Shown here: positions 1 to 15,142 of the stretch, piece by piece
How positions within the stretch are numbered: the first letter of the stretch is position 1
Layout of the letters: every line of letters starts with the position of its first letter
Assembly (NCBI GenBank): GCA_900551605.1
Contig: URWS01000004.1
Location: 1 to 15,142 of the forward strand
Direction of reading: 5' to 3'
Source of the DNA: an uncultured Collinsella sp.
GTDB taxonomy: Bacteria > Actinomycetota > Coriobacteriia > Coriobacteriales > Coriobacteriaceae
Length of the DNA: 15,142 bases
Notes under the pieces: model-generated
What the model was told of the DNA's origin: nothing
The model's database searches: none
Seen by the model: the letters and a program-made list of their open reading frames with translations, nothing else
Made by a program: the position numbers and the translations under genes

Positions 1-60
1 CGCGAAGTCTCCCGCGGCGAACGCCGCCGCGGCCAGCGCGGCCGCCGCCTGCCACCTCAT
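1..60 (-). CDS. Start of a membrane protein (partial, runs off left edge)
   Basis: Only the first 20 codons lie in the window. They read MRWQAAAALAAAAFAAG and then GDFA, a short basic start followed by an Ala-rich hydrophobic stretch typical of a membrane segment or signal anchor. The ATG (58-60) overlaps the TGA of the upstream gene (57-59) as ATGA, the classic arrangement for translational coupling. In elements of the Tn1549/pCF10 type the gene after the PcfB-like protein is usually the VirD4/TraG coupling ATPase, which begins with N-terminal membrane segments. That identity is inferred from position only; 20 residues cannot prove it, and a small PrgI-like membrane protein is equally possible. 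Confidence 0.55.
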   Translation of the reverse strand, partial: MRWQAAAALAAAAFAAGDFA

Positions 61-608
61 CTCTCGGGCCCCTCGATCTGGCGCGGGCCGCGGTCCCGGC
101 CGATGCCCTGGCTGTGGGCCCTCGACGCCTCGCGCGCCCGCTCGGCGCGCTCCGCCAGCCGCTCGGGCGCCTGGCGCCTCTCGGCTATCTCGGAGAGCCG
201 CTCCCTTGCGCGATCGGCGGCCTTGCCCGTCTCTTGCTCCAGCTGGCGGAAGGCCTCGTCGACCTCGGGGGCGTCCTCCACCTTGAAGAGCAGCCAGTCG
301 CGGCCCTCGCCGGGGATGATGTGGTGCTCGACCGACGCGGCGCGCAGCTTGTCGGAGACGACCTCCTTGATCGTCGCGTACTCGGGAAGCCCAGAGAGCT
401 CCTCGAGGCTGAGCTTCGCGTAGGTCGGCGCGCCGTCGGCCGCGATGGCCTCGGCGCGCCCGCCGGCGATGGTCCCGCGGATTCCCGCGAGGCGCTCGGA
501 GAGCTCCCTCGCGCTGCGCGCCATTGCCTCGGCGCCGGCCTCCTGGCCGATTCTCAGCATCCAGTCGAGCAGCTTGCCGCCCGCCTCGTCCCCGTAGTCG
601 CTCGCCAT
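57..608 (-). CDS. PcfB/DUF3801-like conjugation protein (tentative)
   Basis: 183 aa, soluble, highly charged. The start at 608 is chosen because GGGAGG sits 6-7 nt upstream and recognisable protein begins there; the same frame is open much further upstream, but that stretch is the antisense shadow of other genes. Residues 10-45 form an amphipathic Ala/Glu/Arg helix. Residues 64-125 (YAKLSLEELSGL, then DKLRAASVEHHII, then WLLFKVEDAPEVDEAF) have the alternating pattern of DUF3801, the family of PcfB, an accessory factor that works with the coupling ATPase PcfC in pCF10 transfer. From about residue 125 to the end the chain is Arg/Glu/Ala-rich, probably coiled coil or disordered, and contains AREASRAH at 158-165, also present in the tail of the preceding protein. 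It is translationally coupled to the next gene and sits just below an intrinsic terminator (635-656). The family call is from memory of the pattern and is moderate. Confidence 0.55.
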   Translation of the reverse strand: MASDYGDEAGGKLLDWMLRIGQEAGAEAMARSARELSERLAGIRGTIAGGRAEAIAADGAPTYAKLSLEELSGLPEYATIKEVVSDKLRAASVEHHIIPGEGRDWLLFKVEDAPEVDEAFRQLEQETGKAADRARERLSEIAERRQAPERLAERAERAREASRAHSQGIGRDRGPRQIEGPER

Positions 609-634
609 CCCGCGCCTCCCTTCCAGTCGAGATG

Positions 635-656
635 AAAAAGGGCGCCTTCGCGCCCC
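635..656 (-). terminator. Intrinsic terminator in front of the transfer genes
   Basis: On the minus strand GGGCGC, a GAAG loop and GCGCCC are followed at once by TTTTT, a textbook Rho-independent terminator. It lies 9 nt after the stop of the gene at 665-1198 and ends about 26 nt before the ATG at 608, leaving no room for a promoter between it and the PcfB-like gene. Transcription of that gene must therefore read through or start upstream. Confidence 0.85.
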
Positions 657-664
657 GGTCGTCC

Positions 665-1198
665 CTATTCGGCCCCGACGGCCCTCTCGCGCGCCATTGG
701 GGCGCGGGCTTCCTGCCCGGCGTGCGCGCGGCTCGCCTCGCGGGCGGACGCGGCGCGCTGCGCCAGCGGCTCGGGAGCCTTCTCGTGCAGATGGGCCCAC
801 TCGCCGCTGCGGCACTGCTCCGGCGTCGCCTCGCACATGTCGCGCATGGCGCGCTCGAACCGCTCGGGCTCCTGGGCGATGGCGCCGAAGCTCCAGCTCT
901 CGAAGCCGGTCCACGCGTCGCCGTCGCGCTTGAGCGTCCACCACTCGTCGCCGCCGTTCACCTGCTGGATGAACGCGAGGTCGCGGTAGCAGAACCCCTG
1001 GCGTATGGCCCAGTTGCCCGAGCCGAGCGCCTCGCGGAGCCTGTCGACGCTGTCCGTGCGGGAGAACTCGTAGGGGTACTCCTCGAGGAACGGGTCGTCC
1101 TGCCAGTCGAAGCCGCCGACCTTGAGCCAGCCGTTCTCCTGGCACTTCTCCACGAGCCCGTCGTGCTCGCGGCCGGTTATCCTCTCGAAGCCGTCCAT
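665..1198 (-). CDS. Unrecognised Trp-rich accessory protein of the element
   Basis: 177 aa; I do not recognise the family. The ATG at 1198 has GGAGG 4-5 nt upstream, and the frame above it is non-coding leader. Residues 1-145 look globular and rich in aromatics (ENGWLKVGGFDWQDDPFLEE, then GNWAIRQGFCYRD, then DEWWTLKRDGDAWTGFESW). This is a compact alpha/beta pattern without signal peptide or membrane segment and without obvious catalytic motifs. Residues 146-177 are a low-complexity Ala/Glu/Arg tail containing AREASRAH (152-159), which recurs in the neighbouring PcfB-like protein. It is preceded by a 200-nt leader carrying a 38-bp repeat shared with the excisionase leader, and followed by an intrinsic terminator. 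By position it is probably a small accessory or immunity-type protein of the conjugative element, but no function is claimed. Confidence 0.75.
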   Translation of the reverse strand: MDGFERITGREHDGLVEKCQENGWLKVGGFDWQDDPFLEEYPYEFSRTDSVDRLREALGSGNWAIRQGFCYRDLAFIQQVNGGDEWWTLKRDGDAWTGFESWSFGAIAQEPERFERAMRDMCEATPEQCRSGEWAHLHEKAPEPLAQRAASAREASRAHAGQEARAPMARERAVGAE

Positions 1199-1348
1199 GG
1201 GCCCTCCGCCTTTCGTTTGTTGCTTGGCGGGCGGCGTCCTCGCGATGGGGGCACGGTGCGAGTCGGAGCAGGCGTGCGTGCCGGCGCGTCGGCGCCGCCC
1301 AAGACGTGTATAGCGATTTCGATTGCGGCGGCGACCGGGGCCGCCCGC

Positions 1349-1386
1349 GATGGGTCGAGCTGGGTCGAGCCGTCCGCGCCTCCACG
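1349..1386 (-). repeat. 38-bp leader repeat, copy A
   Basis: This 38-bp segment matches 3387-3424 at 32 of 38 positions without gaps and in the same orientation. On the plus strand it holds a tandem TGGGTCGAGC pair (1351-1370) and ends in GCCTCCACG. It lies just below the stop of the helicase-loader gene and about 150 nt above the start of the gene at 665-1198, so it is part of that gene's leader. Confidence 0.8.
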
Positions 1387-1399
1387 GGAAGCGCACAAG

Positions 1400-2188
1400 C
1401 TAGCCGAGCCGGCGCCTGTCCCTTCCGCCCAGGTAGACGGGCCTGCAGGTCTGGGAGATCCTGCTCGCGATCGCCTCTGCCGTTACGCGCTCGCCGCGCC
1501 TCGCGAGCCTGTCCGCCAGCGCGCCCGGCGCGTAGTTCGACGTGACGATGGTCGGGCGCATGTCCTCGTAGCGCGCGTCGAGCACGCTGAACACGGTGCC
1601 GACGGACCATTCCGTCGCGTCCTCCTTGCCGAGGTCGTCGAGCACGAGGACGTCGCACTTGGCGTACCGCGCGACGGCCGCCTCGGTGCCGCCCTCGTCG
1701 AACGTGGCCTTCACGCGCTCGAGCATGCCCTTGGCCGTCGTGAAGGCGACGTCGTAGCCGGCCTCGGCGAACAGCCTGGCCATGGCGGAGGCGGCGTGCG
1801 TCTTTCCGGCGCCGACGCCCCCGTGTATGTAGAGCCCGGCGCCCCCGTTGCCGGCGAACGAGGCGATGTACTCGGCGAACTCGGGGCGGTCGGCCTCGGC
1901 GGCCCAGTAGCGCCTGGGGATGCCCGCGCGCGCGAGCGCCTTCTCCCGGCGGGCGGCCTCCTCCTTGGCGGCGAGGGCCGCGCGCCTTCGCGCCTCGGCC
2001 TCCCGCTCGCTGGTTGCGCCCTCGCACGGGCAGGGGGCGCTGGAGACCCAGGCGACCCTGCCCGCCAGCGCTGCGCCGAGCGGTTCGAGGGCGGCGCCGC
2101 AGTGCGGGCACGCCCTCGGCTCCGGCTCGTCGAAGGAGAGCCCGGCGGCCCGGGCCTGCTCCAGGGTGATGAGTCCCGCTCGGTCCAT
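1400..2188 (-). CDS. DnaC/IstB-type AAA+ helicase loader
   Basis: 262 aa. The ATG at 2188 has GGAAGGGG about 7 nt upstream; the open frame continues above it, but that part overlaps the preceding gene. Residues 27-55 carry CPHC and CPC, a likely small zinc-binding motif before the ATPase core. The core has Walker A GGVGAGKT (123-130), Walker B LVLDDLG (181-187), sensor-like TIVTSN (213-218) and ASRI (241-244), in the usual DnaC/DnaI order. Such proteins load the replicative helicase onto origin DNA in the cytoplasm; in mobile elements they partner an initiator that binds the element's own origin. The initiator gene ends 14 nt upstream (2203), so the two are almost certainly co-transcribed. 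IstB proteins of IS21 share the fold, but no transposase is adjacent and the N-terminal Cys motif favours a replication role. Confidence 0.85.
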   Translation of the reverse strand: MDRAGLITLEQARAAGLSFDEPEPRACPHCGAALEPLGAALAGRVAWVSSAPCPCEGATSEREAEARRRAALAAKEEAARREKALARAGIPRRYWAAEADRPEFAEYIASFAGNGGAGLYIHGGVGAGKTHAASAMARLFAEAGYDVAFTTAKGMLERVKATFDEGGTEAAVARYAKCDVLVLDDLGKEDATEWSVGTVFSVLDARYEDMRPTIVTSNYAPGALADRLARRGERVTAEAIASRISQTCRPVYLGGRDRRRLG

Positions 2189-2202
2189 CGGGCGCCCCTT
2201 CC

Positions 2203-2718
2203 TTATCTTCTGAAGTCCTTGTTGTCCCTTTTGCTTATTGGGTGGCATATCGTCAGGGGTTTCCCTGTCATTTCGTCAGGGGTTCGGGCTGCGAGCCCTG
2301 ACGGTTCGTCACCCTTGTTCGCGGCGAACCCTGTCATTTCGTCACCCTTTCGCGCCGGGAACCCTGACGAATCGTCAGGGGTTGCCAACGCTCCGGGCGG
2401 CAGCCTCTCGCGCACGATGCGGTATCGCTTGGTGGCATGCCCGCGCGCCGGGGCGTGCACGCCGCACTCCTCGATGAGGCCCTGGTCGAGCAGGTTGCGG
2501 ATGGCGCGGTGGACGCTGCGCTCCTGCACGTTGAGGAATCGGGCCAGGCCGCCCTTGCTCTCGAAGTAGCCGCACCCGGCGTCGCAGAAGCCGAAGATGC
2601 GCGCGTAGACGAGCAGGGGAAGGCCTGAGAGGCCGAGGTCCGCCATCATGAAGTGCCGTACCGTCGCGAACTCGCGCGGGGAGGGGCCGTCGCGCCCCCT
2701 CGGGCCTGCGGCCGCCAT
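2203..2718 (-). CDS. HTH replication initiator with 11-residue tandem repeats
   Basis: 171 aa. The ATG at 2718 has AAGAAGGGG about 9 nt upstream and lies 4 nt from the stop of the previous gene. Residues 15-105 form a winged helix-turn-helix (FATVRHFMMADLGLSGLPLL, then GGLARFLNVQERSVHRAIRN), of the HTH_36/DnaD-like sort used by phage and element initiators. Residues 113-156 are four consecutive 11-residue repeats: TPDDSSGFPAR, KGDEMTGFAAN, KGDEPSGLAAR and TPDEMTGKPLT. The DNA encoding them forms 33-bp iterons with a dyad core (2263-2380). The basic end KRDNKDFRR could contact DNA or the loader. Placement directly before a DnaC-type loader supports a role in starting replication of the excised element. 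Function is inferred from domain and context. Confidence 0.75.
   Translation of the reverse strand: MAAAGPRGRDGPSPREFATVRHFMMADLGLSGLPLLVYARIFGFCDAGCGYFESKGGLARFLNVQERSVHRAIRNLLDQGLIEECGVHAPARGHATKRYRIVRERLPPGALATPDDSSGFPARKGDEMTGFAANKGDEPSGLAARTPDEMTGKPLTICHPISKRDNKDFRR
2263..2380. repeat. Four 33-bp iterons with dyad cores (candidate origin)
   Basis: Four 19-bp cores start at 2263, 2296, 2329 and 2362, exactly 33 bp apart. They are CCCTGTCATTTCGTCAGGG, CCCTGACGGTTCGTCACCC, CCCTGTCATTTCGTCACCC and CCCTGACGAATCGTCAGGG. The last is a perfect palindrome with 9-bp arms around one base; the others are imperfect versions. A half-site ATCGTCAGGG follows at 2249-2258, off the 33-bp period. The array sits inside the initiator gene, as in lambda-type origins within O. 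Confidence 0.8.
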
Positions 2719-2722
2719 GGCG

Positions 2723-2971
2723 CTAGCCCCTTCTTGGCGAGCCGACGACGCTGTTGCGCTCGACCCATGCGACGAGCTCGTCGTGCAGCACGATGCCGTC
2801 GCGCGTCTTGCCGCCGATGTAGCGGATCGGGAACGGGTCGTCGCGGTCCTTGGCGAGCCGGTACATGGCGTCGCGGCTGATGCGCAGCATCGCGCACGCC
2901 TCGTCGGCGCCGAATATCGCGTTTGTCGATGCGATGAGCCTCACCTGGCTCCTGCTAGTGCTCTTGGTCAT
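2723..2971 (-). CDS. Small excisionase/AlpA-type HTH DNA-binding protein
   Basis: 82 aa. A MerR-like helix-turn-helix lies at about residues 19-70 (ADEACAMLRISRDAMYRLAK, then DPFPIRYIGGKTRDGIVLHD, then ELVAWVERN), the layout of excisionase-family HTH_17/AlpA proteins: a recognition helix, then a short wing with a basic strand, then a closing helix. Such proteins bend DNA at attachment sites to favour excision, or act as small transcriptional regulators. It ends 4 nt before the initiator gene, so it belongs to the same transcript and may control it. A second protein of the same kind lies 78 nt upstream. The start at 2971 has a weak GAGG-like site about 7 nt upstream and a stronger AAAGGAG somewhat further away. 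Confidence 0.75.
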   Translation of the reverse strand: MTKSTSRSQVRLIASTNAIFGADEACAMLRISRDAMYRLAKDRDDPFPIRYIGGKTRDGIVLHDELVAWVERNSVVGSPRRG

Positions 2972-3049
2972 GGTCGTCCTCGAGCTCCTTTCGTATCGAG
3001 GCTCCCTCGCGTGCCCGGCCGCGGGCGGCTCCCGGGGCGGTCGCCGCCG

Positions 3050-3268
3050 TCATTTCCTGCCGCTCCTCGACTCGATGTAGGCGTCCACTGACGCCCTCGA
3101 AACCAGGAGCTTCCTGCCGAGCCTGTACGAGTCGATCTCTCCCGACCAGATGAGGTCGTACGCCTTGTTTCGGCTCGCCCTCATGTACTGCTGCATCTCG
3201 ATCGCCGTCATCCATTCGTCGCGGCCCTGGTTGTTCTCGGGCGCGGCGCATTCGGCTGTGCGTGCCAT
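3050..3268 (-). CDS. Excisionase-family HTH protein
   Basis: 72 aa. The start at 3268 is fixed by GGAGG five nt upstream; nine more codons are open above but without a site. Residues 18-70 match the excisionase HTH_17 pattern: MTAIEMQQYMRASRNKAYDL, then SGEIDSYRLGRKLLVSRASV, then DAYIES. The first helix pair, the G-R-K-L-x-V-S wing and the terminal DAYI helix are all visible. The likely role is accessory factor for excision of the element or a regulator of its leftward operon. It is the first gene of that operon, and its roughly 120-nt leader contains the second copy of the 38-bp repeat. No integrase is in view, so the link to excision is from family knowledge. Confidence 0.8.
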   Translation of the reverse strand: MARTAECAAPENNQGRDEWMTAIEMQQYMRASRNKAYDLIWSGEIDSYRLGRKLLVSRASVDAYIESRSGRK

Positions 3269-3386
3269 GGTTCCTCCAATCTTCCCGTGCGGCACCGTGC
3301 GGGCACACCGCGCGGCACAGTGTCCCTTTTCGTCTGCGCGACGATTGAACCGCCTGCTGGCGCATCGCGCGCATGACGGGAACGGA

Positions 3387-4006: not shown

Positions 4007-4426
4007 TCAATGACCGCGATGCTTCTGTTTGCGCTTCAGTTTTCGCTGCTCGAAGCGCGCCTCCGCCTCATCCGCTCGACGCTGGCTTCTTGCTTGAGCC
4101 GATTCCCGCTTCATCGTCTCCCGCTGATTCGCGAGCGCCTGCTGCGCCTTGGTGCTCATCGCCGGCTGCTTGAGGGCTTTCGCCGCCTCGCGGGCGCGTC
4201 TCTTGGGGTTCTTCGCGGGCTCGCTCGCCTCGGACGGATCGTCACCGAAGAACGCGAGCTTCGCCCATTTGCTTGTAACGAATCGCAGGATCTCCTCATC
4301 GGACGGTTCTGCGCCGAAGACGATGCGGGCGACGCCGTACCCTCCGTCCTCGACATGCTCCGCCAGCCCGACCCAGAATTGGCCGTCGTGATATACGGTC
4401 AGGGTGGACGACACGCTGATCTGCAT
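4007..4426 (-). CDS. yjdF: YjdF family protein (DUF2992)
   Basis: 139 aa. The ATG at 4426 has a strong AAAGGAGG about 8 nt upstream. The chain matches the YjdF/DUF2992 pattern I know from Bacillus and Clostridia: a beta-rich start (LTVYHDGQFWVGLAEH, residues 9-24), ARIVFGAEPSDEEILRFV (33-50), the conserved NPKRRAREAAKA and STKAQQALAN segments (73-100), and a very basic C-terminal helix ending KRKQKHRGH. The molecular role is unknown. The gene is usually controlled by the yjdF RNA, which responds to azaaromatic compounds, so it is thought to help with toxic heteroaromatics. It diverges from a flavodoxin-fold oxidoreductase gene, which fits a detoxification pair. A structured leader with an anti-Shine-Dalgarno segment lies directly upstream. 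Confidence 0.9.
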   Translation of the reverse strand: MQISVSSTLTVYHDGQFWVGLAEHVEDGGYGVARIVFGAEPSDEEILRFVTSKWAKLAFFGDDPSEASEPAKNPKRRAREAAKALKQPAMSTKAQQALANQRETMKRESAQARSQRRADEAEARFEQRKLKRKQKHRGH

Positions 4427-4530
4427 GGCTGGTTCCTCCTTTATGTAGATGACCATGCAGAGAAGGGACAACCAAGGAGGCAGGTTACTGATGCGGACAT
4501 CCGCACGCCCACGACTACCCGACGGGGACT
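4427..4530 (-). promoter_or_regulatory. Probable yjdF riboswitch leader with SD sequestration
   Basis: The roughly 100-nt leader of yjdF is rich in complementary segments. On the minus strand CCTCCTT (4480-4474) is the exact complement of AAGGAGG in the ribosome binding site (4441-4435), so pairing would hide the start of yjdF. The same CCTCCTT lies in the loop of a small AACC/GGTT hairpin, and GCGGATGTCCGC upstream can form another stem. yjdF genes are typically preceded by the azaaromatic-binding yjdF RNA; the assignment here rests on gene identity and this architecture, not on matching the full consensus. Confidence 0.6.
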
Positions 4531-4533
4531 GTG

Positions 4534-4562
4534 TTTATATCTCTGATGGTTGGATTGTTGCA
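4534..4562 (-). promoter_or_regulatory. Candidate yjdF promoter
   Basis: On the minus strand TATAAA (4539-4534) is a good -10 box, with a poor -35 candidate TGCAAC 17 nt upstream (4562-4557). A start near 4527 would give a leader of about 100 nt, matching the riboswitch length. Confidence 0.4.
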
Positions 4563-15095: not shown

Positions 15096-15142
15096 CTGTC
15101 TCTTATACACATCTGACGCTGCCGACGATCGCATAAGTGTAG
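15096..15142 (+). other. Illumina Nextera adapter and index (artefact)
   Basis: CTGTCTCTTATACACATCT (15096-15114) is the Nextera transposase mosaic end, followed by GACGCTGCCGACGA (15115-15128), an 8-base index TCGCATAA (15129-15136) and GTGTAG, the start of the P5-side primer. TCGCATAA is the reverse complement of TTATGCGA, which I recall as index S522. These 47 bases are not genomic. Confidence 0.97.

What the first reader, a model, noticed from the sequence alone, without database searches (positions are those of the whole stretch)
2263..2380. In-gene 33-bp iterons encode an 11-residue protein repeat and probably form the element's origin
Four 19-bp dyad cores lie exactly 33 bp apart, one a perfect 9-1-9 palindrome. 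Because 33 is a multiple of three, the array is also a four-fold 11-residue repeat in the initiator protein. An HTH initiator with repeats in its own gene, followed by a helicase loader, is the logic of lambda O/P-type origins. The DNA constraint (palindromes) seems stronger than the protein one, since DDSSG, DEMTG and DEPSG vary. I have seen similar repeats in replication proteins of gut elements, so the pattern may be widespread and under-described.
Basis: partly seen in the sequence, partly recalled or inferred. Interest (0 to 1): 0.7.

Follow-up and report, generated by a model that had tools for sequence, protein, structure and literature searches.

The report
Replication origin inside its initiator gene
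A gut-bacterial mobile element appears to carry its replication start site inside the gene of the protein that recognises it, and comparison with many phages suggests that a single amino acid of that protein predicts one letter of the DNA site.

Summary
The array is real. The most AT-rich 50 bp of the 3.3-kb element segment adjoins the fifth. Only one site is a perfect 19-bp dyad.

DNA, not the protein repeat, is what is kept: in 7 of 36 non-redundant relatives with a called array the gene stops at or before it and the iterons are non-coding, mostly with the same 32-34 and final 22-23 bp spacings. In one relative the same palindrome is read in all three frames.

Recognition-helix residue 71 tracks the iteron. 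A rule seen in Coriobacteriia (Arg71 with C at half-site position 4) was tested on viral contigs: Arg in 83 of 92 C4 initiators against 1 of 68 others; 26 of 29 close pairs switch residue and iteron together. So the protein very probably binds its own gene.

Related copies lie on integrative conjugative elements; a DnaC-like loader follows. It works like lambda O/P and pSK41 Rep but is not a sequence member of either. Binding and origin function are inferred, not shown.

The parts
2203..2718 (-). Initiator gene, 171 aa: wHTH domain (about residues 15-105) followed by an array-encoded tail
   Evidence: ORF; AlphaFold2 wHTH with mean pLDDT 87, recognition helix 66-78; best PHROG 'replication initiation protein' E 2.4e-5; HTH_36 only 16.2 bits, below its cut-off of 25
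2506..2511 (-). Codons 70-71 (His-Arg) in the recognition helix; Arg71 is the residue that covaries with the 4th half-site base
2365..2377 (-). Iteron 1, TGACGATTCGTCA (centre of the perfect 19-bp dyad 2362-2380)
2332..2344 (-). Iteron 2, TGACGAAATGACA (one mismatch)
2299..2311 (-). Iteron 3, TGACGAACCGTCA
2266..2278 (-). Iteron 4, TGACGAAATGACA (one mismatch)
2243..2255 (-).
2227..2244 (-). CACCCAATAAGCAAAAGG, a motif that follows the last iteron in coding and non-coding relatives
   Evidence: 22 loci printed; seen, with variation, in 20, not in L061 or L063
2199..2253 (.). Most AT-rich 50-bp stretch of positions 1-3300 (lowest window 42% GC against a mean of 71%); candidate unwinding element beside the array, overlapping iteron 5
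   Evidence: function inferred
1400..2248 (-). DnaC/DnaI-like helicase loader, overlapping the initiator gene by 46 bp
   Evidence: PHROG DnaC-like helicase loader E 4.9e-49; IstB_IS21 E 4e-20
2723..2971 (-). Small HTH_17 protein upstream of the initiator
3050..3295 (-). Excisionase-type HTH_17 protein
   Evidence: TIGR01764, 40.5 bits

Best explanation
The five sites are binding sites (iterons) for the wHTH protein encoded by the same gene, and the array with the adjoining AT-rich stretch is the vegetative replication origin of an integrative conjugative element. Proposed order of events: dimers of the initiator bind the TGAC-N5-GTCA palindromes through their recognition helices (Arg71 reading the base pair at half-site position 4); spacing of about three turns (33 bp) and two turns (23 bp) puts them on roughly one face of the DNA; the complex strains the AT-rich stretch at 2199-2253; the DnaC-like loader made from the overlapping next gene delivers the host replicative helicase. 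The protein tail over the array is a linker that merely tolerates the DNA. Shown here by computation: the array, its conservation as DNA, the residue-base covariation, the predicted fold, the gene order. Inferred: actual binding, dimers, unwinding, loader recruitment and origin activity.
For: (1) Array and fifth site; 0 of 20,000 synonymous recodings reach the observed fit. (2) Non-coding arrays in 7 of 36 non-redundant loci with a called array, spacings 32-34 then 22-23 in six and 13, 19, 33, 23 in L064. (3) One palindrome read in three frames in L083; iterons use two or three frames in 20 of 24 genes of the Coriobacteriia-centred set and in 77 of 102 viral genes. (4) Coriobacteriia-centred set: Arg71 in 20 of 20 xGAC against 3 of 17 other initiators, the best of all domain columns. 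(5) Test on viral loci chosen by DNA pattern alone: Arg in 58 of 63 xGAC against 0 of 42 TGAA; with further classes 83 of 92 against 1 of 68. (6) 26 of 29 disjoint close pairs switch residue and iteron together, for example L431 and L327, 93% alike outside the helix. (7) An HTH hit at 214 of 360 viral arrays against 3 of 331 control positions. (8) Arg71 lies in the modelled recognition helix. (9) Lowest GC beside the last iteron. (10) Loader next door; of 20 viral neighbours sampled, 7 are DnaB, lambda P, DnaC-like or G39P.
Against: No experiment. 17 of 54 non-redundant loci of the first set have no significant array call at p<0.1, among them L043, L055 and L067. 9 of 92 C4 initiators lack Arg71 and 1 of 68 others has it. 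146 of 360 viral arrays of the first three patterns had no HTH hit with the final model, and 159 of 195 of the later three had none. Phylogenetic independence is not formally shown: only 1 and 4 independent pairs rest on well-supported branches, so the Fisher p-values are too small. Codon choice in the cores is not rarer than in the rest of the tail (-1.39 against -1.43 mean log frequency). Synonymous sites in half-sites vary less than in the HTH part (1 of 14 against 25 of 116) but not significantly (p 0.30). Two protein records, P0030 and P0032, have lost most of the array. 13 of 20 sampled viral neighbours were not recognised as replication genes.
Confidence: 0.85

Rival explanations
1. The iterons are operators: the wHTH protein binds them to repress its own operon or to set the level of the downstream loader gene, without being an origin.
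For: The covariation speaks for binding, not for replication. The array lies just before the loader start, and non-coding arrays lie between the two genes, a possible operator place. The two roles do not exclude each other.
Against: The array is downstream of the initiator's start and inside its gene in 101 of 105 viral cases, an unusual place for an autorepressor; several regularly spaced sites next to the AT-rich minimum and a loader fit an origin better.
Confidence: 0.08
2. The protein repeat is what selection keeps (an 11-residue spacer or interaction repeat), and the palindromes follow from the codons.
For: In the 171-aa family four units are in frame and alike; multiples of three are somewhat over-represented among viral spacings (121 of 290).
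Against: Non-coding arrays; several frames per gene; reversed segment in P0006 and P0009; 0 of 20,000 recodings.
Confidence: 0.03
3. The array belongs to another process of the element, such as oriT, a single-strand origin or a recombination or partition site, and a protein other than the wHTH binds it.
For: The element is probably conjugative; the apparently inverted alleles suggest that the sites recombine.
Against: The residue-base covariation ties the wHTH itself to the sites; the relaxase gene lies 16-22 kb away in the five genomes searched; the same architecture occurs in viral contigs.
Confidence: 0.04

Closest known systems
Phage lambda O/P and ori-lambda
   Same: Initiator with its iterons inside its own gene (four annotated iterons in O, 20-24 bp apart, read in phases 0, 2, 2 and 1), followed by gene P, a helicase-loader gene (its role is recalled).
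   Different: Lambda O is not recognised by the family model (1.1 bits); lambda P is replaced by a DnaC/DnaI-like loader; different iteron sequence; the setting is a conjugative element.
RepA_N plasmid initiators (pSK41 Rep)
   Same: From passages of PMC5703833: pSK41 ori lies centrally within rep, the N-terminal domain binds four Rep boxes there, and the protein part encoded there is dispensable. Passages of PMC7145576: semi-palindromic iterons and a DnaD-like fold. Weak fold match here (4pt7, E 4e-3, TM 0.51).
   Different: No RepA_N hit among Pfam matches up to E 1; the protein ends soon after the array; a dedicated loader gene follows.
HTH_36 (PF13730) phage replication initiators or replisome organizers
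   Same: 10 of 10 sampled viral initiators hit HTH_36 (9 over the cut-off); palindromic arrays in the gene in 101 of 105; L083 joins HTH_36 to Phg_2220_C.
   Different: The window protein scores only 16.2 bits against a cut-off of 25; it is short and ends just after the array; its units are 33 bp apart, where 21-24 is commonest in the viral set.
DnaD N-terminal domain
   Same: Weak sequence (2vn2, E 0.017) and fold (2v79, TM 0.54) similarity.
   Different: DnaD is a chromosomal primosome protein (recalled); no iterons in its gene are claimed here.

Membership tests
Lambda O/P-type origin | Iteron-like array inside the initiator gene | tested here: met
Lambda O/P-type origin | Helicase loader encoded directly downstream | tested here: met
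   DnaC-like loader 1400-2248; not lambda P
Lambda O/P-type origin | Sequence homology of the initiator to lambda O | tested here: not met
   1.1 bits with the family model; O-like PHROGs only E 0.0075-0.063
Lambda O/P-type origin | Initiator-loader contact and melting at the array | not testable with these tools
   Only the AT-rich position is seen
RepA_N initiators | RepA_N domain (PF06970) | tested here: not met
   Not among Pfam hits up to E 1
RepA_N initiators | DnaD-like wHTH fold | tested here: inconclusive
   Foldseek E 4e-3 to 1.9e-2, TM about 0.5; many other wHTH proteins score alike
RepA_N initiators | Origin within the rep gene | tested here: inconclusive
   Array within the gene is shown; that it is the origin is inferred
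HTH_36 initiators with own-gene iterons | HTH_36 domain over the Pfam cut-off | tested here: inconclusive
   Window 16.2 bits against 25; its distant relative L083 37.6 bits
HTH_36 initiators with own-gene iterons | 4-N5-4 palindromes just after the wHTH-coding part | tested here: met
HTH_36 initiators with own-gene iterons | Residue 71 agrees with the iteron class | tested here: met
   Window has Arg71 and TGAC
Integrative conjugative element | Relaxase, coupling protein and integrase on the same element | tested here: inconclusive
   Not in the window. In related genomes: relaxase 16-22 kb and a tyrosine integrase (387-aa frame) 21-49 kb from the initiator in 5 of 5 genomes searched; coupling protein in G143. 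That they form one element is inferred from distance

The most novel reading that the evidence does not exclude
A large class of wHTH (HTH_36-like) initiators of phages and conjugative elements carry their origins in their own genes and obey a simple recognition code. Arginine at recognition-helix position 71 specifies C at half-site position 4; Lys, Asn, Thr, Asp or Ser go with A. Positions 67 and 70 help set position 1: Lys67 in 19 of 41 GGAC against 0 of 46 TGAC, and Ile, Leu, Met, Val, Phe or Tyr at 70 in 1 of 41 against 30 of 46. Origins and the cross-talk between coexisting elements could then be read from sequence, and specificity has switched many times because protein and site sit in one DNA segment and are inherited together.
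Probability: 0.75. Interest if true: 0.75.

Novelty: new variant of a known kind. Interest (0 to 1): 0.62.

Why it matters
In-gene origins are known from lambda O and pSK41. What I did not find described in ten searches of an open-access library (most subscription journals are missing there) is that the same layout runs through a broad class of phage and conjugative-element initiators, that the array is conserved as DNA whatever the protein does with it, and that one recognition-helix residue predicts an iteron base. That would make origin place and origin specificity predictable from sequence, explain odd repeats in many 'hypothetical' HTH proteins, and give natural matched pairs for testing how initiator specificity changes. 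For Coriobacteriia it supplies a concrete origin candidate for a widespread conjugative element.

Tried and rejected
Protein-led scans of IMG/VR found no relative, and plasmids gave none by tblastn; the viral relatives were reached by DNA-pattern scans. The phylum search matched 5 of 396 genomes, all of the order Coriobacteriales by the kinship shown and already seen in earlier searches. Lambda O as a homologue: rejected. Codon rarity as a sign of DNA constraint: no difference. Conservation of synonymous sites among 15 close alleles: right direction, not significant; a first version wrongly mixed in unrelated genes of the same length and is discarded. Tree tests: the two traits agree (5 and 5 changes, 31 rows; 29 and 28, 105 rows) but branch support is too weak for a sign test. 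A regex for the reversed alleles failed by its own design; that statement rests, and the DNA of P0006 and P0009 was not seen. Rows dropped: before the tree, loci without an array call at p<0.1 and seven distant ones (L086, L117-L120, L136, L137); before the counts, rows 80% or more alike or too short. L082 is not among the 7 non-coding arrays because its top-scoring palindrome was another one, though its TGAC sites also follow the stop.

Full report
What is there. The minus-strand gene 2203-2718 encodes 171 residues; the loader gene 1400-2248 overlaps its end. On the coding strand the tail holds TGAC-N5-GTCA sites at 2365-2377, 2332-2344, 2299-2311 and 2266-2278 (33 bp apart) and a fifth at 2243-2255 (23 bp on, other frame). 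Two are exact and three have one mismatch. Only the first sits in a perfect 19-bp dyad; the others score 3, 5 and 6 of 9. The lowest-GC 50 bp of positions 1-3300 starts at 2199-2204, 42% against a mean of 71%, beside and partly over the fifth site.

DNA or protein constraint. Random synonymous recoding of the tail with the element's codon usage never reaches the observed half-site fit (0 of 20,000). In the close family a 160-residue form lacks exactly one 33-bp unit (L014, L015). Two protein records (P0006, P0009) read, in the middle of the tail, nearly the peptide that the window's opposite strand would give, as if the segment between two palindromes had been flipped; their DNA was not seen. 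Class-wide, 57 of 396 Coriobacteriia genomes have a match, and 76 of 395 in the order by profile. Of 54 domains under 90% alike, from these and a few phages, 36 have xGAC, TGAA or TGCA as top palindrome; in 7 of these the gene ends at or before the array, six times with its TGA stop inside the first site, and the array lies after the gene with spacings such as 33-33-22, 34-33-23 and 32-33-22. So 33 bp is more likely about three turns of DNA than eleven codons. In L083 one palindrome GGACAAAATGTCC is read as GQNVQ, TKCP and DKMS in one gene. Against this: codons in the cores are no rarer than elsewhere in the tail, and the excess conservation of synonymous half-site positions among 15 alleles is not significant.

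Who binds it. AlphaFold2 gives a wHTH (pLDDT 87) with recognition helix 66-78. Palindromes were called without a preset motif, with dinucleotide shuffles as control: 33 of 54 loci at p<0.05 and 37 at p<0.1. Among those 37, Arg at position 71 occurs in 20 of 20 xGAC loci and 3 of 17 others (the distant L086, L136 and L137); no other column does better. This gave the prediction: Arg71 goes with C at half-site position 4.

Independent test. An HTH of this family was found at 214 of 360 arrays and at 3 of 331 control positions (135 of 360 and 0 of 331 with the starting model). After removing rows 80% or more alike, 105 remain: Arg in 58 of 63 xGAC and 0 of 42 TGAA, the strongest of all column-residue tests. 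Together, 160 non-redundant rows: 83 of 92 with C at position 4 have Arg71, 1 of 68 others. Of 29 disjoint pairs at least 50% alike outside the helix but with different class, 26 differ as predicted; L431 and L327 are 93% alike there, and their printed half-sites change along with Arg to Lys. The Fisher p-values treat rows as independent, which they are not; trees of this short domain support few independent switches, so the close pairs are the better argument.

General layout. In 101 of 105 viral cases the array lies in the HTH gene; sites use more than one frame in 77 of 102 genes; the commonest spacings are 21-24 bp. Ten random initiators all hit HTH_36, nine over its cut-off. Of 20 sampled neighbouring ORFs (the longest starting within about 1.2 kb downstream) 7 are replication genes (three DnaB, two lambda P, one DnaC-like, one G39P), 5 have other domains and 8 none. 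Bacteroides and Flavobacterium phages show other palindromes at the same in-gene place, by eye; the residue-71 rule was not tested on them as a class.

The element. The window shows only its replication end, with an excisionase-type HTH gene upstream. In five related genomes a relaxase lies 16-22 kb and a tyrosine integrase 21-49 kb from the initiator, and in G143 a TraG/VirD4-type coupling protein lies a few kb downstream. An integrative conjugative element is therefore the likely carrier.

Known precedents. In lambda the four annotated iterons lie in O and start in three different phases. For pSK41, passages of PMC5703833 say that ori lies within rep and that the protein part it encodes is dispensable; passages of PMC7145576 describe RepA_N iterons and the DnaD-like fold. 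Passages of PMC3218068 report no AICEs in Coriobacteridae under that survey's criteria. Other papers were seen only in search listings. I found no description of the residue-base rule; the library lacks most subscription journals.

Verdict. The finding stands with corrections. The window's array is very probably the initiator's own binding array and probably the element's origin; the protein repeat is a by-product. Shown by computation: array, DNA conservation, covariation, predicted fold, gene order. Inferred: binding, unwinding, loader recruitment, origin activity.

Noticed in passing
window 15096-15114: Exact 19-bp Nextera transposon end, read as the 'MCIRDR' peptide in the last ORF: the end of the window looks like an adapter artefact.
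   Followed up: yes
window 4448-4550 (-): azaaromatic (yjdF) riboswitch, 62.9 bits, at the start of a DUF2992 gene at 4007-4471 (-).
   Followed up: no
P0006, P0009 (protein records): Tails whose middle reads as the reverse strand of the array: apparent inversions between palindromic sites.
   Followed up: partly
P0030, P0032 (protein records): Family members whose array-encoded tail is nearly gone; possibly defective copies.
   Followed up: no
L002, L005, P0031: Nearly the same element under record titles Arcanobacterium haemolyticum and Varibaculum vaginae, and one protein labelled Chlamydia trachomatis: wide transfer, mixed samples or mislabelling.
   Followed up: no
L086: A distant HTH initiator with GGGGGTAC-type palindromes in its gene, another site type outside the 4-N5-4 scheme.
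   Followed up: no
L140 (after the HTH): Thirteen TGAA-type sites (3 exact, 10 with one mismatch) 15 or 18 bp apart in one gene, an unusually long and dense array.
   Followed up: no
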